Origin: an uncultured Pseudomonadota bacterium
GTDB lineage: Bacteria > Pseudomonadota > Gammaproteobacteria > Steroidobacterales > Steroidobacteraceae
DNA length: 51,814 bases
NCBI GenBank assembly: GCA_903908265.1
Contig: CAIVRI010000049.1
Location: 1 to 51,814 of the forward strand
Direction: 5' to 3'
Numbering within the stretch: position 1 is the first letter of the stretch; each line of letters starts with the position of its first letter. Shown piece by piece: positions 9,527-20,295 of the stretch. The notes under the pieces are model-generated. The model saw nothing but the letters and a program-made list of their open reading frames with translations, was not told the origin of the DNA and ran no database searches. The position numbers were made by a program, and so were the translations under genes.

Positions 9527-10759
9527 TTAGAAACTAACGCGGACGAGCGAAAAGTCATCATCCAACGGGCCCTCGCCATGACGAGCACGACCCCAATCAA
9601 AGAGGTCGGAGAGACCCGTCGGTTTCGTGCCCGAATGCAGCATAAAGGCTTCGAAATCTTCGAAAGTACCTTCGCTGCCGTCTTCAATAGACCGAATCTC
9701 GAAGCAGCCGTCGCACAACACGAGCAACGTCGAGCCCTCTGGCACGTCAATTGTCTCGGACTCATACTCTATATCCTCCATGACGCCCACAATCAGTCCC
9801 GGCGCGCGTAACTGTGTGGCAGTGCGCTGACCTTGGGCATCCGCAGGCCCAAGCAACAACGCGGGCGGATGGCCGCCACTGGCGTGCCGGAGCTGACGGG
9901 TCGGCATGTGATAAACGCCGTACCAGAACGTGAAGTACATGTCGTTGTGCTTCTCGCACAGAAACGCGTTGCTAATGCCACCCAGTACGGCACCCGCATC
10001 GCGGAAATCGACTCCGGCCAGCGCCTGGGTGCGCATGACGTTGATCGCCGTCACCGCCAACAAACAAGCACCAACGCCATGACCACACACGTCAAGCAAA
10101 TACACCGCAAAGTGGTCTTTATCAATCCAGTGATAACCGAACGCATCGCCACCCAATTCGGTCGAAGGTTGGTAGAACCAATCCACTTTCAACGGACTAT
10201 TTTGCGGTGGCGGGAAACTCGAACGGACATAGCGGAACGCTTCATCCAGCTCGTGATCGAGACGTTTCTGGGTGCGTTCCAGCAGTTCTTTTTCTTCCTG
10301 CAACTGACGGACGCGCTGCGCATCCAAATCACGCAATCTCTTCTTATCAATCGAAGAGGTAACGCGCGCACGGAGCAACGTTGGGTTGTAGGTCTTCGGC
10401 AGGTAATCTTCAGCGCCCGCTTCGATGCACTTCACCGCCGTGTCGATTTGCTCAGTGCTCGAAATGACGATTACCGGCAACCGGCCCAGTGCCGGCTCAC
10501 TTTTCATTAGCAAGAGGAGCTCTGTGCCGCTCATTACCGGCATTTCAATATCGAGCAACATAACGTCGAATTCTTCGACGCGAATTCGTTCCAATGCCTC
10601 GAGACCGTTACCGGCTTCTGCGACCGACTCCACACCCAATTCACGCAGTGATCGGATCAAGGCTAGACGCATCAGGCGGCTGTCATCGACGACGAGAACG
10701 CGCGCCGAAGCGAGCAATGATTGAGAGGTGGCCGACGCGGCCGGGACAAGATCGGTCAT
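9527..10759 (-). CDS. Response regulator fused to PP2C/SpoIIE serine phosphatase
   Basis: 410 residues. Receiver domain at about 19-135 with acidic pocket 'VVDDS' (23-27), phospho-acceptor Asp70 and Lys122. A coiled-coil linker (about 140-178) leads to a PP2C/SpoIIE-type (RsbU-like) phosphatase: 'ELGGDAFGY' with Asp205, 'LLDVCGHGVGA' with Asp223, 'SGGHPPALL', 'LCDGCFE' with Asp350 and 'DDDFS' near 400-404, so all metal ligands are present. It is the last gene of the chemosensory operon and its start overlaps the preceding regulator by ATGA. Known relatives dephosphorylate an anti-sigma-antagonist (STAS) protein and so switch sigma-factor or cyclase activity. No STAS or anti-sigma gene sits here, so the target is encoded elsewhere. 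Confidence 0.9.
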   Translation of the reverse strand: MTDLVPAASATSQSLLASARVLVVDDSRLMRLALIRSLRELGVESVAEAGNGLEALERIRVEEFDVMLLDIEMPVMSGTELLLLMKSEPALGRLPVIVISSTEQIDTAVKCIEAGAEDYLPKTYNPTLLRARVTSSIDKKRLRDLDAQRVRQLQEEKELLERTQKRLDHELDEAFRYVRSSFPPPQNSPLKVDWFYQPSTELGGDAFGYHWIDKDHFAVYLLDVCGHGVGACLLAVTAINVMRTQALAGVDFRDAGAVLGGISNAFLCEKHNDMYFTFWYGVYHMPTRQLRHASGGHPPALLLGPADAQGQRTATQLRAPGLIVGVMEDIEYESETIDVPEGSTLLVLCDGCFEIRSIEDGSEGTFEDFEAFMLHSGTKPTGLSDLFDWGRARHGEGPLDDDFSLVRVSF

Positions 10760-11169
10760 TGGGAATCCTGGGCAGTTGATGATGCCTCGTTGCGCGGCTG
10801 CAAGGCTACGATACGAGACATTTTGGGTATTAGAGTGGCGCTATCACAGGGCTTCATCAGATAATCACGGACGCCAAGGCGAGCCGCCGCCGCTAGAGTT
10901 GCGGGCGCCGAGTTCGCCGTCAGCATGATCACGGGCGTACGAGCGATCGGGGGATCTGCGCGCAGTGCGCGTAGGAAACCCAACCCATCCAGTACCGGCA
11001 TGTTGTAGTCGAGCAGCACGAGGTCTGGATGAATAGCCCGCACAACGTCCAAGGCAATTGCACCGTCGGCCGCCTCGGCCAAGGTACAGTCAAAAGACTG
11101 CAGCATTTGCGCTAATGCGCGCCGCTGCAAACTGCTGTCGTCAACCAAGAGAATGGTGGGACCAGCCAT
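10756..11169 (-). CDS. Single-domain response regulator (CheY-like)
   Basis: 137 residues from the ATG at 11169, which overlaps the previous stop as TAATG; the frame runs further up but the extra 16 residues match nothing. It is a lone receiver domain: 'LLVDDSS' (7-13), phospho-acceptor Asp54 in 'VLLDYNMP', the Thr/Ser switch residue in 'MLTAN' (82-86), and Lys106 in 'MKPCD'. It ends in a short, probably flexible tail. In the operon it probably receives phosphate from CheA; the CheX-like protein encoded just before could remove it. With no flagellar motor genes in the window, it may be a phosphate sink or a regulator of another output instead of a motor switch. Confidence 0.88.
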   Translation of the reverse strand: MAGPTILLVDDSSLQRRALAQMLQSFDCTLAEAADGAIALDVVRAIHPDLVLLDYNMPVLDGLGFLRALRADPPIARTPVIMLTANSAPATLAAAARLGVRDYLMKPCDSATLIPKMSRIVALQPRNEASSTAQDSQ

Positions 11170-11618
11170 TACGCAACCTCTAAATAGACAGCGATGACGG
11201 CACCATTCGATTGCCACACCGCGCAGGCGGTGCCCGGCACGATCGTGTCGGGCCGCTGCATCCCATGTGGCGTACCAAATTCCATAGGAGCGAGTGGCCC
11301 ATCAACCAATCCAGCGAGGCGGCCTGCAATCAGGTTAACGCCTTCAGCAACTGCCTCTTGCAGGGCGCCTGCGTCCGGCGATGCGCTGGGCTGACCGAGC
11401 AGACGATCCAATAGGCTAGCCGCCGCTGCAGCGTCCATTGCTAGGGCCAAGCGATAGCGTACGCCGGCAGCCATCAAGCGCACATCTGCACCGATTCCAG
11501 ATGCCTGCACACGCTGATCGGCACCGACCATCTGCAGCGACAGCCCGAGGGAGGCCCCCAGCACATCGTGTACAGCCACGCGGATATAGGGCAAGTAGGC
11601 CATGGCAGACACAGTCAT
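11169..11618 (-). CDS. CheX/CheC-like phosphatase domain protein (tentative)
   Basis: 149 residues. The only clear motif is 'EAVAEGVNLIAG' (88-99), with Glu92 and Asn95 spaced as in the catalytic helix (E-x-x-N) of CheX/CheC/FliY CheY-P phosphatases; overall predicted alternation of strands and helices suits that fold. The rest is diverged, so the family call is tentative. Its start overlaps cheB by ATGA and its stop overlaps the CheY-like gene, so it is translationally coupled to both. A role in removing phosphate from one of the two response regulators encoded next is likely if the catalytic pair is real. Confidence 0.55.
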   Translation of the reverse strand: MTVSAMAYLPYIRVAVHDVLGASLGLSLQMVGADQRVQASGIGADVRLMAAGVRYRLALAMDAAAAASLLDRLLGQPSASPDAGALQEAVAEGVNLIAGRLAGLVDGPLAPMEFGTPHGMQRPDTIVPGTACAVWQSNGAVIAVYLEVA

Positions 11619-12670
11619 GAGGCACTCCGACGGTAAACTGCCTCGATTATCGCCTCGGGCATCGCTTCTAGCGTAACGATTTCTTGGGCCGCGCCAAGAT
11701 TAATTGCGGCCTTGGGCATGCCAAATACTACGCAGGATTCTTCCGATTCGACCAAAGTCGCGGCACCCGCAGTCCGCAGCATGCCCATACCGCGGGCGCC
11801 GTCCGACCCCATGCCAGTCAACAGCACCGCGACTACTTCCCGGCCGACCTGTTCGGCCGCCGAACGGAACAAGACATCGACCGAGGGCCGACTGTGATTG
11901 ACGGGGGGTGACTGAATCACCCGCAATCGATGTACATTCCCCTGCCGAACGAGCAGCACATGAAAGTCGCCGGGAGCGACCAGACATAAGCCTGGACGCA
12001 ACTCATCGCCATCCCGCGCTTCGCGGACCTCAAACGGCGTAATCCGGTCCAGATGCTCCGACATCACCTTTGAAAAGTGGGCAGGAATATGCTGCACCAC
12101 AACAATCGGCGGACTATCGGCCGGCAGGCGCGGCAACAAATAGCGTAGCGCCTCAACGCCACCGGTAGAGGCCCCGATCAGGATCATCCGCTGACGCGCA
12201 CCCACCGGACGCGTAGATCCCGTCCCCGCAGCTGCTCGGGACGGCTCCGAGCGCCGCGCACGGCGCTTGGAACCGGCCGCTGCGTGCACCTGAGCGATCA
12301 ATCGACGCCCCATCGCGGCAACGCCCTGTCGACCATCCGGCTTTTGCAACACGTCAAAAGCCCCCGCCTCCAGCGCCTCCATGGCCAGCGACGATCCCGT
12401 AGGGGTCAAGTTACTCACCACTATCACCGGCACCGGATGGTGTTCCATCAGAATTCGTAGGAACGTCAATCCATCCATCAAGGGCATCTGCAAATCGAGC
12501 GTCACAACATCCGGCGAAAGCCCGAGAATCAGCTCGCGCGCCTGATAAGCATCCTCCGCCGCGCCGACCACATCGATCGACGGATCCTGCCCGAGCGCCT
12601 CTGAGAGCGCACGCCGCGCCAGCGCGGAATCGTCAACAACCAAAACCCGGATGCGGCGCCCAGCAATCAT
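11615..12670 (-). CDS. cheB: Protein-glutamate methylesterase CheB
   Basis: 351 residues, the normal CheB length. The N-terminal receiver has 'VVDDSA' (11-16) and phospho-acceptor Asp59 in 'VVTLDLQMP'. A basic, Ala/Arg-rich linker (130-158) leads to the methylesterase domain with the catalytic triad Ser168 ('GASTGG'), His194 ('QHIP') and Asp290 ('GMGSDGA'). It removes methyl groups from, or deamidates, glutamyl side chains of the MCP when phosphorylated by CheA, giving adaptation. Overlaps cheR by ATGA upstream and the CheX-like gene downstream. The call is secure. Confidence 0.96.
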   Translation of the reverse strand: MIAGRRIRVLVVDDSALARRALSEALGQDPSIDVVGAAEDAYQARELILGLSPDVVTLDLQMPLMDGLTFLRILMEHHPVPVIVVSNLTPTGSSLAMEALEAGAFDVLQKPDGRQGVAAMGRRLIAQVHAAAGSKRRARRSEPSRAAAGTGSTRPVGARQRMILIGASTGGVEALRYLLPRLPADSPPIVVVQHIPAHFSKVMSEHLDRITPFEVREARDGDELRPGLCLVAPGDFHVLLVRQGNVHRLRVIQSPPVNHSRPSVDVLFRSAAEQVGREVVAVLLTGMGSDGARGMGMLRTAGAATLVESEESCVVFGMPKAAINLGAAQEIVTLEAMPEAIIEAVYRRSAS

Positions 12671-13518
12671 GATCGCGTGTAGACCCCGTGACTGACGCTG
12701 CTCAAACGAGGGACCAATCCAGTGAGACTCTCAGAATAGCCGACCACTAGATAACCGCCAGGAACGAGATACTCCAACAAGCGCTCCACCACAGCGCGAC
12801 GGGTGTCTACGTCAAAATAGATCATGACGTTACGGCAGAAAATCACGTGCTGTGGCTCGCGAATTGGGTAATGCGCGTCAAGCAGATTAATCCGCTGATA
12901 AGACACCGCAGCGCGCACCTCGCGACGTAATCGGCAACGGCCATCTTGTGCGCCAACCCCACGCTCGAAATAGCGAGGCAGCAGATCCGGAGGCACTACC
13001 GCCACGCTATCCATCGAATAAACACCGCGGACAGCCACGTCGAGCATACGCCGCGAGATATCCGACGCTTGCAGCACCCAGCGATGCAGAGGATCGCGAC
13101 GCTGATCTTCTGCAGTCAGCATCGCGAGGGTATAAGGTTCCTCACCCGAGGACGCGGCCGCCGACCACACACGCACCGGGTAGCCAGTCGGCATCGCAGC
13201 GCGCAGCGTTGGCGCCAATTCCTGCATCAACACCGTGAAATGCTCAGACTCGCGAAAGAACGCCGTGTGATTGGTCGTCATCAGATCGACGAGTGTTTCG
13301 ATTTCCTCGCCCGTCGCATCCGCACGCACAAAATCGCCGTAATCATCCAGGCTCAGCAGCCCGACATCTTGCACACGCCGCCGCAGCCGATTGGCCATCA
13401 GCTGGTGTTTATCCGGCCCGATACAGATGCCACTGTAATCATGCACAAGGTCCGCTAACGCACGCAGACCCCGATCGGATACGTACAGCCCAGCGGTCTT
13501 CTCGAGGCGAAGTTCCAC
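12667..13518 (-). CDS. cheR: Chemoreceptor methyltransferase CheR
   Basis: 283 residues from a GTG start; no clear Shine-Dalgarno sequence precedes it. The N-terminal helical domain includes 'TTNHTAFFRE' (81-90), and the SAM-binding fold has 'VWSAAASSGEEPYTLAM' (117-133) and 'VIFCRNVMIYFD' near 224-235. CheR methylates glutamates on the receptor. The MCP in this operon lacks a C-terminal NWETF-like pentapeptide tether, so CheR probably docks directly on the methylation helices. The stop overlaps cheB by ATGA and the gene starts 12 bases after the MCP stop. Confidence 0.95.
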   Translation of the reverse strand: MELRLEKTAGLYVSDRGLRALADLVHDYSGICIGPDKHQLMANRLRRRVQDVGLLSLDDYGDFVRADATGEEIETLVDLMTTNHTAFFRESEHFTVLMQELAPTLRAAMPTGYPVRVWSAAASSGEEPYTLAMLTAEDQRRDPLHRWVLQASDISRRMLDVAVRGVYSMDSVAVVPPDLLPRYFERGVGAQDGRCRLRREVRAAVSYQRINLLDAHYPIREPQHVIFCRNVMIYFDVDTRRAVVERLLEYLVPGGYLVVGYSESLTGLVPRLSSVSHGVYTRS

Positions 13519-13530
13519 GCGAGGCAGCCT

Positions 13531-15174
13531 TTAGAAACTGCGGAAATCTTTGTCCTCGTCGCGCAGCGACCGGACCTCCGGCATCGGAATCCGATCCAAA
13601 GTATGCGTCGGCAGCTGCGACAAACGCTGCGGATCCCGTGCACGAAAGCTGCCGGTAGCGCTATGCGAGGGTACAGCGCGAGCCATCGGTTCGCTCTGCA
13701 TCTCTTCATCATCTTCGAAGCGCCCAACCAAACCTTCCAACTTCTCCACAGCACGCGTTAGGTTCTCTGCATGCGAATTCAATTCTTCCGCACGGCTAAA
13801 GCTCTGTTCGGCACCCGACGAGTTGGACTGGGCAATGCGGTCCATTTGACCCAAGGCTAGGTTGACCTGCGTCACACCCAAGGCCTGTTCACTGGCTGCT
13901 TTGGCAATTTCCGCCACCAGCAAATCAGTTGCCACCACCTTATCGGAAATATCGTTCAGCGCACGCGCCACTTGTTCACTGCGCGCACTACCGCGTTGCG
14001 CACTCGCCATTGCGACATCAATTTTCTGCGCCGTTTCGCGCGCAGCAGCTGCGCTACGCTGCGCCAGGGACCGCACTTCGTCGGCCACGACCGCAAATCC
14101 GGCGCCTGCTTCACCTGCCCGCGCCGCTTCAACTGCAGCGTTCAGGGCCAGAATATTTGTCTGGAAGGCAATCTCGTCAATGTTTTTGACGATCTTGGCC
14201 ACGTCCGAACTGGCGACGCCGATATCCGCCATCGCAGCCACCATGGCATCCATGGTATTGACGCCTGTGCCTGCCAAGGAACGCGCATCGGAGGCCAACA
14301 CCATCGCCTTCTGACTGTTGTCAGCGGTTGACCGGATCATCGCCGACATTTGCTCAAGCGACGCACTGGTCTCTTCAATGGCGGCTGCCTGCTCTGAGGC
14401 ACCGCTGGACAAGGTTTGGCTTGCGGTCATCATCTGCAGCGCCGCCGAAGCCGTGTGCATCGAGCCCCGGTTGAGGTCCACAAGAATTGCGCCGAGACCA
14501 GAGTGAATCGTGCGTAAGGTAAACCATGCCAGCGTGGCCGAAACCAGCACGGCCAACAGTGAGGTCACGCCCAATAGCCACATCGTCATCCGCGCCGCTT
14601 CCTGGCTGGCAAGTGCCGCCGCCTGCGCAATCCGATTGTGATATTCCAGCGCGGCTTGGATCGCATGTTGGAAGCGCGCATAACTCGGGTACTGGACCTC
14701 ACGAATAAGTCGCTGCTGCTCAAGGAGCGCTTCCCACTCGCCCAAGGAACTCTGGTTGTCCAGCGCGTTGATCTGTTCCTGCGTCTTAGCAAGAGTCTCA
14801 TGCGTTGACCGAATTTCATCGAGCAGTCGACGATCATCGGCTTCTGAATTCAGGTTTGTTTCATACTTCTTAAGATTCTCGACAATGCTCGCTTCGCGCC
14901 TTGCGCTATCCGCGATTAGTCCCTGCGCGGTGGTTTCATCTGCGTCCACGGCACTTAAGCGATTGATATGTTCGCCTTCGGCTTGTACGGCCATATCACT
15001 AAGCGCAAGTACCGTCGGTAACGTGCTCTCCGCCATCGTCACAATTTCGCCTCGCAACGAGGCGAGACGCACAACGGCGAAAACACTAATCATCGCCAGC
15101 ACGAGCAAGAGGGCCCCGAGGCCCACCGTGATGCGGCGCGTAATGGTCCAACCGGAAGAATTTAAAGCGTTCAT
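13531..15174 (-). CDS. Methyl-accepting chemotaxis protein with four-helix sensor and no visible HAMP domain
   Basis: 547 residues. TM1 about 15-37; helical periplasmic domain 38-196 without Cys or obvious ligand motifs, fitting a four-helix-bundle (4HB_MCP) sensor; TM2 about 197-219. Only some 20-40 residues separate TM2 from the methylation region ('[16 protein letters not shown]', 261-276), and none of this matches the Pro-containing HAMP pattern, so a HAMP domain appears absent or very degenerate. The signalling hairpin tip is intact ('[21 protein letters not shown]', split across 334-354, then '[15 protein letters not shown]'). A charged tail follows after residue 485. It probably senses through its periplasmic bundle, perhaps with help from the PotD-like binding proteins encoded next to the operon. 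Stop is 12 bases before cheR; start overlaps cheW by ATGA. Confidence 0.93.
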
Positions 15175-15686
15175 GAAGCCCCTGTGCCAGCGTCGGCGGA
15201 AAGGGAGTTGACATCGGGGATTTCAAAACTCACATCGGACGCGAGTATCTCTTGCATGTTGAGTACTGCTCGAACTCGTTCAGTGGAGGTCGCGATGCCA
15301 GCGAGGAATCGCCCCTCCACCGCACCCACAAAATCTGGGGGTGGTGCCAGTTGTGATGCGCCAAGCACAACCACATCATCAACCGCATCGACGATCGCTC
15401 CGACTTGAGAGAGATTGCCGCCGGCTCGATGTTCCAGCACGATAATGCAAGCGCGGTCATCGTAGTCGATCGAAGCCATTCGAAACTTGGCTCGCAAGTC
15501 CAAAACGGCCAACACCGTACCACGAAGGTTAATGACCCCGCGCACATAGTCGGGCATCTGCGGCACGCTGGTGATCGGACAGAGCCGGACCACCTCGCGT
15601 ACCGTACCAATTTCGACGGCATAATGGGACGAGCCGAGATGGAACGTCAGATATCGCCCAGGGTTCGGGGCGGACGGATTGCTCAT
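15171..15686 (-). CDS. cheW: Chemotaxis coupling protein CheW
   Basis: 171 residues, one CheW domain: '[22 protein letters not shown]' features at about 13-34, '[25 protein letters not shown]' around 44-68, and a final '[11 protein letters not shown]'. It links the MCP to CheA in the signalling array. Start and stop overlap cheA and the MCP by ATGA, so the three are translationally coupled. Nothing unusual apart from a short Ser/Ala-rich C-terminal tail. Confidence 0.95.
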
Positions 15687-17905
15687 GCCAGTGCTCCCAT
15701 CGGCCGTTGTGAGTACCCAGCGGGAAGCCGCGCTAGTGCTTCGGCATCGAGAATCAGCGCAACGCGCCCGTCGGAGAGAATAGCGCCCCCGGCGACCAAG
15801 GTCTGCCCGACGAATGCGTCGCCTAGATTCTTGATGATCACTTCATGCTTCCCAAGGACTTCATCGACCAACAAGGCCCGCTCGCCGGCGCCGGTCTCCA
15901 AGCGCACAATTATGCCTGCTTCCGGGCCCGCTGCCGCGCCCTTAAGGCCGAGACAGCGCGCCAAACGCAAGATGGGCAGTTGTTGACCGCGGACGTCGAC
16001 CATTTCGCCCCGCTCGTGAATAGTCGACACGCTGCCAGGAATCGGCCGAAAACACTCCCGGACCGCTGCCGACGGCAATAGGTAGCGTTCATCCGCCACC
16101 CGAATCAGGAACCCATCGATCTGCGCCAACGTCAGCGGTAACCGGATCGCAAACGTCGTCCCCGTGCCCAACGCCGTGCGAATATCGACGTGACCACGCA
16201 GGGCATCGATATGCCCTTTTACGACGTCCATACCGACGCCACGCCCTGAAACATCCGTGACCGCTGCCGCCGTCGTGAAGCCAGGAAGAAAAATCAGAGC
16301 GAGCGCCTCGTCGGTAGTGAGTTCCCGCCCCGCGTCAATCAGATGCTTTTCAATCGCGCGCGCTTTCAACGCGGCGGTATCGATGCCCCGGCCGTCATCG
16401 GAGATCTGCAGCAAGATGCCGCCATGGGCGTGCGATGCCGACAACCGCACCGTGGCCACTGGGTCTTTACCCGCCGCAGCGCGCACCTCGGGCAGTTCAA
16501 CCCCATGGTCCAGGGCATTTCGAATCATGTGAATCATCGGGTCGGTCATGCGCTCGACCAACTGCCGGTCCAGTTCCGTCTCTTCGCCCTGCATGACCAG
16601 CCGTGCCTGCTTGCCCAGCGAAGCGGCCAAGTCGCGAACCAGTCGCGACATTTTTCTGAACAGTCCGGAGACCGGAACCATACGCATGGACATCGCGTTT
16701 TGCTGCAATTCTCGGGTAATGCGCACCAGTTTGCGCACCGCATAACCGAGCTCCAGATCTTCAGCGGCGCGCACATCGCTACTTTCCAGCACGAAAGCCT
16801 GCGTAATCACGAGTTCACCAACCAAATTCACCAGCGTATCGAGCTTCGATGCATCCAGTCGGACGAAAGAATCGGCACGATCCGCGCCCCCTTTCGACGG
16901 CCCGGGAGTCGCCGCCAGAGGCGCGCGCTCCGCACTAGCGCTTGTAGCCGACGTCGCAACCGGGGTCGGCGCGGCGGCCAATTCAGGCTCTTCACCTGCC
17001 AGTGCTTTGCGGACCAAGGCCAGTACCGGAGCGGCTGGCAGGCGGATCGGTTGCAGGGGCTCACTACCGGACACCTGCGCACCCACCTGCGCGATACAGC
17101 GAGCCAAGACATCGGCACCGGCCAGAATCGCCGCCACCACGCCGCGACCGACCGCCAAGCGGCCCGACCGCACTTCATCCAACAGGGATTCTAATTGGTG
17201 AGCGAAGTCTCGCATCGCGTCCAATTGCAGGAAGCCGGCACTGCCCTTGAAGGTATGAAATGCCCGGAATATGGAGTTGACCACCTCTGGCGTAGCGGAG
17301 CCAGACTCCAGGTCGAGAACCGACTGCTCCATTGCTCGAAGTAACTCCAGCGACTCACTATGGAACTCACGCAGCAATTCGAGATCGCCCGGCAGACGCA
17401 ACGTGAAGGTGGGCGTCCCGTCGTCCACAGCCGCCGCAGGCGCAGGGGCGGGCACCGACGCGGGTGCTGCGGCCGGTGGCGCACTCGGCGTTGCCGGGGC
17501 TGGAGCGGCTGCGATCGGCGGTGTGGGCGCTGCAGCGACGCGCCATTGTTCAGGCAATGGCACAACGGGCTGCCGGGTTTCGCGGGCAACCAGATGGTCA
17601 ATGCACCACCCGTGCCAAGCATGCAAATTCTGCACGACCGCCGCGGTGAACAGCCCATCTCCATCCAGAACGCCGTCGACCCAACGCCGCGCGATTTCAA
17701 CCGCGTCGGCCATCGGACCGGAGGCGTGTAGGAATGGAATCGCTTCAAGATCCATCAAAAGGGCATTGACGGGGAGCAAGCCATCCCCGGAGCCCGGCGT
17801 TACAAACGCCAGCTCTTCGGCAAAGCGCTCCAGCACGACAGCCACCGCCTCAGTCGGCATTTCGCCGGAGGCACTGGTCACGGACTCGTTTTCTTCCCCC
17901 TTCAT
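15683..17905 (-). CDS. cheA: Chemotaxis histidine kinase CheA with an extra N-terminal region
   Basis: 740 residues from the ATG at 17905; a TTG five codons earlier abuts GGAG too closely to be used. Order: about 120 residues of unassigned sequence containing 'HAWHGWCIDHL'; an Ala/Pro linker (about 125-160); an HPt domain with phospho-His217 in 'FRAFHTFKGSAGF'; a second Ala/Pro linker (about 305-340) with no P2 domain recognisable; the P3 dimerisation helices (from about 345); the ATPase with N box 'HMIRNALDHG' and glycine boxes 'DDGRGID' and 'GRGVGMD'; and the C-terminal CheW-like domain. First gene of an eight-gene operon. The lack of an obvious P2 (CheY-binding) domain and the additional N-terminal region distinguish it from the E. 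coli enzyme. Confidence 0.93.
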   Translation of the reverse strand: MKGEENESVTSASGEMPTEAVAVVLERFAEELAFVTPGSGDGLLPVNALLMDLEAIPFLHASGPMADAVEIARRWVDGVLDGDGLFTAAVVQNLHAWHGWCIDHLVARETRQPVVPLPEQWRVAAAPTPPIAAAPAPATPSAPPAAAPASVPAPAPAAAVDDGTPTFTLRLPGDLELLREFHSESLELLRAMEQSVLDLESGSATPEVVNSIFRAFHTFKGSAGFLQLDAMRDFAHQLESLLDEVRSGRLAVGRGVVAAILAGADVLARCIAQVGAQVSGSEPLQPIRLPAAPVLALVRKALAGEEPELAAAPTPVATSATSASAERAPLAATPGPSKGGADRADSFVRLDASKLDTLVNLVGELVITQAFVLESSDVRAAEDLELGYAVRKLVRITRELQQNAMSMRMVPVSGLFRKMSRLVRDLAASLGKQARLVMQGEETELDRQLVERMTDPMIHMIRNALDHGVELPEVRAAAGKDPVATVRLSASHAHGGILLQISDDGRGIDTAALKARAIEKHLIDAGRELTTDEALALIFLPGFTTAAAVTDVSGRGVGMDVVKGHIDALRGHVDIRTALGTGTTFAIRLPLTLAQIDGFLIRVADERYLLPSAAVRECFRPIPGSVSTIHERGEMVDVRGQQLPILRLARCLGLKGAAAGPEAGIIVRLETGAGERALLVDEVLGKHEVIIKNLGDAFVGQTLVAGGAILSDGRVALILDAEALARLPAGYSQRPMGALA

Positions 17906-18041: not shown

Positions 18042-19103
18042 ATCACCATTCGCCCCCTCTTTGCCCTCGCCGTCGCTTTGGCGGCCTGCGCCAGCGCTAA
18101 TGCGGAGACTGGCCGGCACTTGCGTATTTTGACTTGGCAGGGCTACGTCCCAGCCGATGTTGCCGCCGACTTTGAAAAAGAAACCGGGATCCACGTTGAA
18201 GTGACCCTGTCGAGCAACGAGGACATCATCAGTCGCCTCAGGGCCTCCAACGGCGCCGGCTTCGACCTCGCCCAACCCTCGCACGACCGTATCGCCGGCG
18301 CCCAGCAGACCTACCACATCTATCGTCCCTTCGATGAAAGCCGCCTACCGACGCAGCGTTACATCCCGCAAATGCTCGACGCGGTCCGTAAGAATACGAC
18401 CATAGGCGGCCGACTCTATGCCGCCCCGTATTTGTATGGCATCGAGGGCCTAGTCGCCAACACCCGTCGCGCCCACATCACGGACTATATCGATCTGTGC
18501 CGCCCCGACCTTGCCGGGAAAACTGCGATTCGGCTCCGACGACCCACGCTGATCGCCATGGCCTTCTCGCTCGGGAAGGACCCATTCGCCCTGTACGCGG
18601 ATCCGCCCGCCTATGCCAAGCTGATCGAACAAGTTGCCGACCGCCTGATCGAGTGCAAACACAATCTAGGCATGGTGTTCGAAGATCAGAACCAAATGGT
18701 CGGTGCCATCAAGTCAGGGCACATCGTGGCGGCTATGTTCTGGGACGCCCCGATCTGGGAAATGAACCGCCAGGCGCCTTCGATCCGCTACATCGAGGCT
18801 AAAAGTGGTTCATTGGGCTGGATCGACACTTTCGCCCTCCCCGCCCGTGGAGAGAACGAGGACGCCGCCTACGAGTGGATCAATTTTACGAGCCGGCCGG
18901 AGATTGCGGCGCGAATCAGCAAGACAGTGGGCAACTTCACCGCTTACAGCGGCACACTAAAGTACGTCAATGCACGCCTAAAGACCCAGCTGTTCCTAAG
19001 TCTGCCGCGTGGCTTTGGCGCCGTACACTGGTACCCCAACGTACCAGCCGGTTTTGAAGACTTGGAGTCTAAGGCACTGCAGCGCGTACGCGCCGCGCAC
19101 TGA
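18042..19103 (+). CDS. PotD-like periplasmic polyamine-type binding protein, copy 1, apparent ATC start
   Basis: 353 residues if begun at ATC 18042, the same length as its tandem copy and alignable without gaps, including a signal peptide ('ITIRPLFALAVALAAC', then 'ANA'). No ATG, GTG or TTG exists at or upstream of this point in frame back to at least 17976; the only standard start, TTG 18078, would cut the signal peptide away. GAGG eight bases before ATC supports initiation there. The mature protein matches extracellular solute-binding proteins of the PotD/PotF type: 'TWQGYVP' near the N-terminus, 'PSHDR', 'FWDAP', and 'WIDTF', in which the W-x-D corresponds to PotD Trp255/Asp257. No permease or ATPase gene is near, so it may present a ligand to a receptor rather than feed a transporter. 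Confidence 0.85.
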   Translation: MTIRPLFALAVALAACASANAETGRHLRILTWQGYVPADVAADFEKETGIHVEVTLSSNEDIISRLRASNGAGFDLAQPSHDRIAGAQQTYHIYRPFDESRLPTQRYIPQMLDAVRKNTTIGGRLYAAPYLYGIEGLVANTRRAHITDYIDLCRPDLAGKTAIRLRRPTLIAMAFSLGKDPFALYADPPAYAKLIEQVADRLIECKHNLGMVFEDQNQMVGAIKSGHIVAAMFWDAPIWEMNRQAPSIRYIEAKSGSLGWIDTFALPARGENEDAAYEWINFTSRPEIAARISKTVGNFTAYSGTLKYVNARLKTQLFLSLPRGFGAVHWYPNVPAGFEDLESKALQRVRAAH

Positions 19104-19233
19104 AGCCCGCCAGCGGATCTCAGTTTTTCGACTCCTGCCCCAGAACCGTATCGGAAGGGTGACAGGACCCTCGCTGCTAGATTAACCTCGTGGCGTTTTT
19201 GCCGACCGCGCCCGAACGCCCAGAGCACCCGCC

Positions 19234-20295
19234 ATGACCCTGCGCCACTTGTTCCTGCTCGCCGTGACACTGACGGTCTGTGCCACCGCAAATGCCGCCG
19301 CGACTCGGAATCTGAGAATTCTGACATGGCAGGACTATGTTCCGGCTGACGTGGCGGCCGACTTTGAAAAAGAAACCGGAATCCACGTCGAGGTGACCCT
19401 CTCAAACAACGAGGACATCATTACGCGCCTACGGGCCTCCAATGGCGCCGGTTTCGACCTCGCGCAACCCTCGCATGACCGCGTCGCAGGCGCCCAGCAG
19501 GCCTACCATATCTATAGGCCGTTTGATGAAAGCCGATTGCCCATGGACCGGTATATACCGCAAATGATCGACTCGGTCCGCAAGAATACGACCCTAGGCG
19601 GACGACTCTATGGCTCGCCATATTTGTATGGCATAGAGGGTCTGGTCGCCAACACCCGCCGCGCCCACATCACGGACTACAGCGATATGTGCCGGCCTGA
19701 TTTAGCCGGCAAAACGGCGCTGCGTATCCGTCGCAATACGCTGATCGCCATGGCCTTTGCGCAGGGTAAGGATCCGTTCGCTCTGTATGCGGATCCGCCC
19801 GCCTACGCCAAACTGATCGATGAAGTGGCCGATCGCCTGATCGAATGCAAACACAATCTAGGCATGGCGTACGAAAGCCAGAACCAGATCGTCGACGCCG
19901 TCAAGTCAGGGCACATCGTGGCCGCTATGCTCTGGGACTCTCCAATCTATGAAATGAACCGCCAAGCGCCATCGATCCGCTACGTGGATCCGAAGAGCGG
20001 CGCGCTGGGTTGGATCATGACCTTCGCCCTTCCGGCCCGCGGGGAGAACGAGGACGCCGCCTACGCATGGATTAAGTTCACCAGCCGGCCCGAGATCGCG
20101 GCGCGCATCAGTAAAGTCGTGGGCAACTTCACCTGTTACAGCGGCACACTCAAGTACGTGGACGCGCGCCTAAAGACACAGCTATTTTTGAGCCTACCAA
20201 AGGGCTTTGGATCAGTGCATTGGTACCCGAACGTACCGGCCGGTTTCGAAGATCTAGAGTCGAAGGCACTGCAGCGTGTCCGCGCAGCGCACTAA
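19234..20295 (+). CDS. PotD-like periplasmic polyamine-type binding protein, copy 2
   Basis: 353 residues from ATG 19234, with signal peptide 'MTLRHLFLLAVTLTVC' and a likely cut after 'ANA' (about 21). The fold motifs of copy 1 are kept: 'TWQDYVP' (31-37), 'QPSHDR' (78-83), 'LWDSP' (233-237). The key difference is 'GWIMTFALP': Met262 replaces the Asp that copy 1 keeps and that in PotD contacts the polyamine. Trp to Tyr (239) and Gly to Asp (34) changes also lie near the presumed cleft, so the two copies probably differ in ligand. The stop overlaps the convergent SulP stop by four bases. Transport genes are absent from the neighbourhood. Confidence 0.88.
   Translation: MTLRHLFLLAVTLTVCATANAAATRNLRILTWQDYVPADVAADFEKETGIHVEVTLSNNEDIITRLRASNGAGFDLAQPSHDRVAGAQQAYHIYRPFDESRLPMDRYIPQMIDSVRKNTTLGGRLYGSPYLYGIEGLVANTRRAHITDYSDMCRPDLAGKTALRIRRNTLIAMAFAQGKDPFALYADPPAYAKLIDEVADRLIECKHNLGMAYESQNQIVDAVKSGHIVAAMLWDSPIYEMNRQAPSIRYVDPKSGALGWIMTFALPARGENEDAAYAWIKFTSRPEIAARISKVVGNFTCYSGTLKYVDARLKTQLFLSLPKGFGSVHWYPNVPAGFEDLESKALQRVRAAH

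What the first reader, a model, noticed from the sequence alone, without database searches (positions are those of the whole stretch)
9527..17905. Chemosensory operon whose last gene is a receiver-PP2C phosphatase
Seen: cheA, cheW, one MCP, cheR, cheB, a CheX-like protein, a lone receiver and a receiver-PP2C/SpoIIE fusion, nearly all joined by ATGA overlaps, with no motility genes. Known: receiver-PP2C proteins such as HsbR or RsbU-type regulators control STAS proteins and so sigma factors or cyclases. Inference: the pathway drives gene expression or biofilm state, with two competing receivers and a phosphatase tuning the flow.
Basis: partly seen in the sequence, partly recalled or inferred. 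Interest (0 to 1): 0.72.

Follow-up and report, generated by a model that had tools for sequence, protein, structure and literature searches.

The report
Chemosensory operon with partner-switch phosphatase output
A bacterium without detectable flagellar genes carries a complete chemotaxis-type sensing operon that appears to end in a protein-phosphatase switch, and its likely partners elsewhere in the genome include a bacterial relative of the Golgi protein GOLPH3, which would be an unusual output for such a system.

Summary
The operon is real: cheA-cheW-mcp-cheR-cheB-cheX-cheY-(receiver-PP2C), minus strand, six of seven junctions overlapping. The genome has no FlhA match, so flagellar chemotaxis is unlikely. 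Contig C66 carries GPP34-STAS-HATPase_c_2: a SpoIIAA-like STAS protein, an RsbW/SpoIIAB-like kinase and a protein of the GOLPH3/Vps74 family. In 60 family genomes, receiver-PP2C (E<=1e-60) and GPP34 occur in the same 12; farther out the tie weakens. In two relatives the cassette adjoins the che operon, in one more all parts form one row of genes, in four Burkholderiales it lies 3.6 kb from cheA. The six sigma-70 proteins are RpoD, RpoH and ECF-type. Best reading: the array controls the phosphatase, which resets the STAS/kinase switch, whose controlled partner is probably GPP34, not a sigma factor. Chemosensory-partner-switch coupling is known (Shewanella Che1-CrsR); a GPP34 output appeared in none of my literature listings. 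All functions are inferred.

The parts
9527..10759 (-). receiver-PP2C (SpoIIE-type) phosphatase, last gene and predicted output
   Evidence: Pfam Response_reg 94.5 and SpoIIE 115.8 bits; receiver D25, D26, D70, K122 and PP2C D205, D223, D350 invariant in 10 aligned sequences; roles of the residues recalled
10756..11169 (-). cheY-like lone receiver
   Evidence: Pfam Response_reg 96.5 bits; ATG at 11169
11169..11618 (-). cheX-like phosphatase
   Evidence: Pfam CheX 20.8 bits, under cut-off; ExxN invariant in 17 sequences; profile hits CheC-like/CheX structures
11615..12670 (-). cheB methylesterase
   Evidence: Pfam CheB_methylest 211 bits plus receiver; NCBIfam NF001965 389.2 bits, over its cut-off
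12667..13518 (-). cheR methyltransferase (GTG start)
   Evidence: Pfam CheR 170.8 and CheR_N 38.7 bits
13531..15174 (-). chemoreceptor with 4HB sensor domain
   Evidence: Pfam MCPsignal 132.6 and 4HB_MCP_1 35.9 bits
15171..15686 (-). cheW
   Evidence: Pfam CheW 106.9 bits
15683..17905 (-). cheA with Hpt, dimer, HATPase and CheW domains
   Evidence: Pfam, four domains over cut-off; HTFKGSAG in 8 of 8 sequences compared
18078..19103 (+). PotF/PotD-like periplasmic binding protein, divergent from cheA (possible input; start unsure)
   Evidence: Pfam SBP_bac_8 65.2 bits
19234..20295 (+). second PotF/PotD-like binding protein
   Evidence: PDB hits PotF E 5e-24; a homologue lies divergent beside cheA in 7 of the 8 relatives L040-L047

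Best explanation
A non-flagellar chemosensory array (4HB receptor, CheA, CheW, CheR, CheB), perhaps reading a periplasmic binding protein, sets the phosphorylation of a receiver-PP2C phosphatase. CheY with CheX acts as a drain or second branch. The phosphatase dephosphorylates the SpoIIAA-like STAS protein encoded in a separate cassette on contig C66; the RsbW-like kinase of the same cassette rephosphorylates it. The third cassette protein, GPP34 (GOLPH3-like), takes the place that a sigma factor has in RsbU/V/W: it is held or released by the switch and acts at the membrane, perhaps on transporters. Shown by sequence: the parts, their motifs, their co-inheritance in the family and their linkage in relatives. 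Inferred: phosphotransfer, the substrate, GPP34 as target, and what GPP34 does.
For: C66 holds the only HATPase_c_2 match with a short standalone frame far over cut-off (95.6 bits; a second, 30.0 bits, is in a 484-residue frame), overlapping a standalone STAS gene. STAS profile matches SpoIIAA (E 7e-17), kinase profile RsbW (4e-11) and SpoIIAB (7e-9); the motif SSAG is invariant in 12 of 12 STAS proteins. In the family, receiver-PP2C (E<=1e-60) and GPP34 occur in the same 12 of 60 genomes, 5 of 25 genera; GPP34 is rare in the class, 8 of 370. Linkage: cassette adjoining receiver-PP2C in G027 and G102 (L045, L129); CheA, CheB, receiver-PP2C, kinase, GPP34 and STAS in a row on one strand in G031 (L048); cassette 3.6 kb from cheA in four Burkholderiales. 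STAS within 60 bases of GPP34, and kinase within 600, in 22 of 22 cassettes of the family and of ten other pseudomonadotal genomes taken. In Opitutaceae L171, kinase, STAS, GPP34, a receiver and a receiver-PP2C follow one another. All six sigma-70 proteins are RpoD, RpoH or ECF-type. G027 keeps receiver-PP2C next to cheB, with no cheR or cheY match and little room for cheX between them.
Against: In the window's own genome the cassette is on another contig, so the link is by homology. G013 has GPP34, but its match covers only the PP2C part and no che operon was seen beside it. G019 has STAS and kinase but no GPP34. In the class sample, of 14 genomes with a near full-length receiver-PP2C match at E<=1e-40 only 4 have GPP34, and the two strongest of the rest, G351 and G265, lack it. 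Of 12 verrucomicrobial genomes with che genes near receiver-PP2C, 5 have GPP34, and in two of these five (L276, L277) no STAS lies near it. GPP34 also occurs without a close receiver-PP2C (G194, G288, G307, G463), and standalone GPP34 genes in G083, G094, G206 and G029 (second copies) have no STAS beside them. A second SpoIIE phosphatase (C21) and an RsbR-RsbS-RsbT/SpoIIE cluster (C88) are possible alternative partners. Genomes are related, and the 1e-60 line was drawn after seeing the data, so the p-values are only a guide.
Confidence: 0.6

Rival explanations
1. The switch controls a sigma factor, as Che1-CrsR-CrsA is thought to control RpoS in Shewanella; GPP34 is an accessory.
For: Published precedent (passages of PMC9855816 and PMC6482189); ECF-type sigma factors are present.
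Against: None of the six sigma-70 proteins is RpoS, FliA or SigB by NCBIfam. GPP34, not a sigma gene, is the recurrent neighbour.
Confidence: 0.15
2. The STAS protein activates a diguanylate cyclase and the output is surface growth, as in HsbR-HsbA-HsbD or SiaABC-SiaD.
For: Precedent in passages of PMC7647112 and PMC6482189.
Against: Nothing decisive: cyclases were not searched for.
Confidence: 0.1
3. The receiver-PP2C acts on another STAS protein (for example RsbR or RsbS of contig C88), and the GPP34 cassette is served by the C21 phosphatase.
For: Both exist in the genome.
Against: C88 has its own HATPase-SpoIIE fusion; linkage and co-inheritance tie receiver-PP2C to the cassette. The spread of the C21 phosphatase among relatives was not tested.
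Confidence: 0.1
4. An ordinary motility pathway (swimming or twitching).
For: CheY is present; a cluster that I read as Pil-Chp lies on C145 (named by eye).
Against: No FlhA; the C145 cluster has its own large CheA-like protein, MCP and receivers.
Confidence: 0.05

Closest known systems
Shewanella oneidensis Che1 with CrsR-CrsA-RpoS, and ancestral F7 stage 1/2 clusters
   Same: Chemosensory genes clustered with a phosphatase or phosphatase-domain regulator and anti-sigma factor antagonists; non-flagellar output proposed (PMC9855816 passages, PMC7184735 section 10).
   Different: Here Pfam finds no kinase/anti-sigma domain in the phosphatase, the STAS and kinase genes are separate and unlinked, no cheD gene is among the eight, no RpoS was found, and GPP34 joins the switch.
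RsbU-RsbV-RsbW / SpoIIE-SpoIIAA-SpoIIAB partner switches
   Same: PP2C phosphatase, STAS protein and GHKL kinase with conserved motifs.
   Different: No SigB- or SigF-type sigma found; the phosphatase sits in a che operon; GPP34 is the recurrent third partner.
Pseudomonas RssB (PDB 3eq2; that 3eq2 is RssB is recalled)
   Same: Best PDB sequence match of the receiver-PP2C profile, E 1.5e-37, over most of its length.
   Different: NCBIfam RssB cut-off 700, score here 116.7; here the gene is in a che operon.
GOLPH3/Vps74 and Streptomyces SCO4440
   Different: Linked to a partner switch; SCO4440 is linked to a carboxypeptidase gene (PMC12402492 passages).

Membership tests
Flagellar chemotaxis system | flagellar export genes in the genome | tested here: not met
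   no FHIPEP (FlhA) match at E<=1; the control rings in E. coli, B. subtilis, Caulobacter and Thermotoga among others; only this one flagellar family was searched
HsbR/CrsR regulators | receiver, PP2C and C-terminal kinase/anti-sigma domain in one protein | tested here: not met
   only receiver and SpoIIE found; the protein ends with the PP2C domain
CrsR-CrsA-RpoS pathway | RpoS present | tested here: not met
   six sigma-70 region 2 proteins, none over the RpoS cut-off; genome 97.6% complete
RsbU/V/W-type partner switch | PP2C with metal-binding aspartates, STAS with phosphorylatable serine, GHKL kinase | tested here: met
   residue roles and the phosphorylated serine are inferred from SpoIIAA and recalled
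RsbU/V/W-type partner switch | sigma factor target | tested here: inconclusive
   no SigB-type sigma; ECF-type ones present
RsbU/V/W-type partner switch | kinase phosphorylates and PP2C dephosphorylates the STAS protein | not testable with these tools
   biochemistry needed
GPP34/GOLPH3 | PF05719 over its gathering score | tested here: met
   105.8 bits, cut-off 29.1
GPP34/GOLPH3 | GOLPH3/Vps74 fold | tested here: met
GPP34/GOLPH3 | phosphoinositide binding | not testable with these tools
   lipid binding needs an assay
CheX | PF13690 over cut-off in the window protein | tested here: not met
   20.8 of 27 bits
CheX | conserved ExxN motif (role recalled) and profile match to CheX structures | tested here: met
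   invariant in 17 of 17; E 3e-14 to CheC-like and 9e-13 to CheX chains
Chemosensory class (F classes, ACF, Tfp) | class model of CheA | not tested
   no class models on hand

The most novel reading that the evidence does not exclude
Bacterial GPP34 proteins are the direct targets of partner switches: a chemosensory array, through a PP2C phosphatase and a STAS/kinase pair, controls a GOLPH3-like membrane adaptor that places or gates transporters and enzymes. GPP34-MFS and GPP34-P450 fusions and the neighbouring Na/Pi-cotransporter-family genes would be its effectors.
Probability: 0.35. Interest if true: 0.9.

Novelty: new variant of a known kind. Interest (0 to 1): 0.7.

Why it matters
It would give a post-translational, non-motility, non-sigma output for a chemosensory array, and a regulatory context for bacterial GPP34 proteins, which a 2025 paper calls not previously described in prokaryotes (passage of PMC12402492). 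It also makes the unclear function of ancestral chemosensory systems with phosphatases and anti-sigma antagonists (PMC7184735, section 10) testable in another lineage.

Tried and rejected
Flagellar reading: rejected, no FlhA. RpoS/FliA/SigB reading: weakened. HsbR membership: rejected on domain content. GPP34 as a strict mark of receiver-PP2C proteins in general: rejected; in the class sample 4 of 14 genomes with near full-length matches at E<=1e-40 have it, in verrucomicrobial che-type genomes 5 of 12, and it occurs without the switch in four class genomes. Polyamine as the ligand: left open; the binding proteins resemble PotF, but by my reading of the alignment not all amine-binding acids are kept (residue roles recalled).

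Paper searches for GPP34 mostly returned an unrelated insecticidal protein of the same name or GOLPH3 cancer papers.

Three of the 80 loci dropped out of the tree for length. G101 and G144 have GPP34, but their neighbourhoods were not examined. A Foldseek search of the GPP34 model was not run; the aligned list rests on Foldseek's own ranking.

Full report
Observation. The minus strand from 17905 to 9527 carries cheA, cheW, one receptor gene, cheR, cheB, a cheX-like gene, a lone receiver and a receiver-PP2C gene. Six of the seven junctions overlap. Motifs are kept in orthologues: the CheA Hpt site HTFKGSAG in 8 of 8, and the receiver-PP2C motifs VDDS, LLD.EMP, GGD/AGD, DVCGHG and CDG in 9 of 9; the last motif, DDD/PDD-FS, matched in 7 of 9, one of the two misses being cut off by its contig end and the other reading DDDFT; one CheB (G027) did not match the serine pattern. 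The CheX call rests on its family, not on the single protein.

The host. The window is contig 49 of a 3.40 Mb, 174-contig genome, 97.6% complete. Named records with the closest orthologues are metagenome-assembled genomes, several titled Gammaproteobacteria; the tools gave no name for the window's own genome. There is no FlhA match. There are six MCP signalling domains and, on C145, a cluster that I read as Pil-Chp, with its own large CheA-like protein.

The partners. A search for STAS domains gave seven places, five over cut-off: one in the SulP gene of this window, three on C88, one on C66. HATPase_c_2 gave two places over cut-off; the C66 one scores 95.6 bits in a 153-residue frame, and its gene overlaps the STAS gene by four bases. 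Upstream is a GPP34 gene. C88 holds protoglobin-STAS, STAS, an HATPase fused to SpoIIE, and a hybrid kinase, which looks like a stressosome set with its own phosphatase.

Co-inheritance. The same 98 genomes were searched for receiver-PP2C (17 with a match at 1e-20), the C66 kinase (28 at 1e-8) and GPP34 (17 at 1e-5). In the family (60 genomes) receiver-PP2C at 1e-60 and GPP34 fall on the same 12 genomes; the kinase falls on these and three more. At 1e-20 a thirteenth family genome, G023, enters with a receiver-only match. In the window's genus 7 of 15 have both and 8 have neither. Fisher values (7e-13 by genome, 2e-5 by genus) ignore kinship and a threshold set afterwards. The che operon of the window's kind was seen in nine of the twelve (the window and L040-L047); G031 and G054 have more distant che genes beside receiver-PP2C; for G013 none were seen.

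Wider sample. In the class, GPP34 is in 8 of 370 genomes. The receiver-PP2C profile matches 101 of 370 at 1e-25, many by the receiver alone. Near full-length matches (340 or more of 408 positions) at 1e-40 are in 14 genomes, of which 4 have GPP34; all three genomes with a match above 500 bits have it, while the next two (G351, 380 bits; G265, 368 bits, with a cheB match upstream) do not. Of 50 genomes behind loci, 24 have GPP34: 10 of 12 pseudomonadotal and 5 of 12 verrucomicrobial ones with che genes in the locus, the one behind L120, whose contig is cut at the gene, and 8 of the 25 others. A base rate for Verrucomicrobiota was not measured.

Linkage. In G027 (L045) and G102 (L129) the GPP34-STAS-kinase cassette faces the 3' end of the receiver-PP2C gene. 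In G031 (L048) CheR-TPR, CheA-receiver, CheB, receiver-PP2C, kinase, GPP34 and STAS follow one another on one strand, with one unnamed frame before CheA. In four Burkholderiales (L272, L273, L274, L291) STAS-GPP34 with a divergent kinase lies about 3.6 kb from cheA, and in G005 (L044) the cassette is 4.7 kb from cheA. STAS is within 60 bases of GPP34 in 22 of 22 cassettes of the family and ten other pseudomonadotal genomes, within 200 bases in 8 of 12 others (a ninth, L173, is cut by its contig but shows part of a STAS gene). It is not near GPP34 in 5 of 5 loci of four genomes without a close receiver-PP2C (two of these loci lie near contig ends), in G206, in G083 and G094, or in the second GPP34 genes of G029.

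Phylogeny. In a tree of 78 receiver-PP2C proteins, 34 rows (the window's included) have a cheA or cheB match over 250 bits in their locus. All 34 fall in one fully supported branch of 38 that spans Pseudomonadota (Burkholderiales included) and Verrucomicrobiota; three of the other four (L120, L139, L158) are cut off by their contigs at the gene, and L155, labelled Spirochaetes, shows no che genes. One che row, L180, has a weaker, separate set of che genes. Of the 46 loci without che genes, 31 have a STAS or HATPase model match over 30 bits. This fits one union of a partner switch with a che operon, followed by lateral spread; that is inference.

Output. Sigma-70 region 2 was found in six proteins: RpoD, RpoH, one best matching RpoE (225.7 bits, just under its cut-off of 236 on a shortened frame), one PRK09047-type, and two further ECF-type proteins. 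With no RpoS, FliA or SigB, GPP34 is the best candidate for the controlled partner. Other GPP34 domains in these genomes are fused to MFS transporters (Pfam-tested in G000, G005, G013 and G029) or, in three genomes of the order, to cytochrome P450; the G000 fusion best matches metabolite/H+ symporters, under that model's cut-off. A Na_Pi_cotrans gene lies within 3 kb of 16 of 34 cassettes or GPP34 genes, but not near the one in the window's own genome. This suggests, no more, that the output is at the membrane and touches transport.

Input. A PotF-like binding protein gene is divergent from cheA in 7 of 8 relatives. It may feed the 4HB receptor; beside the window's pair lies a SulP gene, and no permease or ATPase was recognised, judged from frames only. 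Of the 34 che loci, 9 show the binding protein, all among the window's closest orthologues; many loci are short, so it is not a fixed part as far as seen.

Known ground. Passages of PMC9855816 describe Shewanella Che1, with CrsR and CrsA in its locus, as probably involved in RpoS regulation. Section 10 of PMC7184735 describes stage 1 F7 clusters with anti-sigma antagonists and a serine phosphatase, and calls the function of stages 1 and 2 unclear. Passages of PMC6482189 and PMC7647112 describe HsbR-HsbA-HsbD and SiaABCD; passages of PMC9239204 describe STAS-kinase-PP2C combinations in Campylobacterota. Passages of PMC12402492 state that GOLPH3-like proteins had not been described in prokaryotes before. 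The listings showed no paper joining bacterial GPP34 or GOLPH3 to a partner switch or chemosensory system (lists are capped: 25 of 139 papers, 25 of 49; most subscription papers and preprints are not held).

Verdict. The kind is known; the GPP34 partner makes it a new variant with an unusual output.

Noticed in passing
L052:3859-7871 (G000 C88): Protoglobin-STAS, STAS, an HATPase fused to SpoIIE, and a hybrid histidine kinase in a row: a stressosome-like set.
   Followed up: partly
L228:1477-3339 (G000 C106); L044:4080-5945; L230:3131-5020; L229:7600-9507: GPP34 domains fused to the N-terminus of MFS transporters.
   Followed up: partly
L235:6100-8181; L236:5716-7800; L237:6958-9003: GPP34 domains fused to cytochrome P450 in three genomes of the same order.
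   Followed up: no
L272:9052-11384 and relatives: A roughly 240-residue membrane-like protein without a Pfam match and a Na_Pi_cotrans gene between the GPP34 cassette and cheA; in four Burkholderiales loci a glutaminase homologue too.
   Followed up: partly
window 18078-20295: Two tandem PotF-like binding-protein genes; the first has only a TTG start in the listed frame, and its signal peptide seems to begin upstream.
   Followed up: no
L048:2040-3182: A STAS domain fused to an APH-family phosphotransferase domain near the G031 che genes.
   Followed up: no
L171:2854-9301: In an Opitutaceae genome, genes that by eye look like an ABC transporter (binding protein, permease, ATPase) run directly into the kinase-STAS-GPP34 genes.
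   Followed up: no
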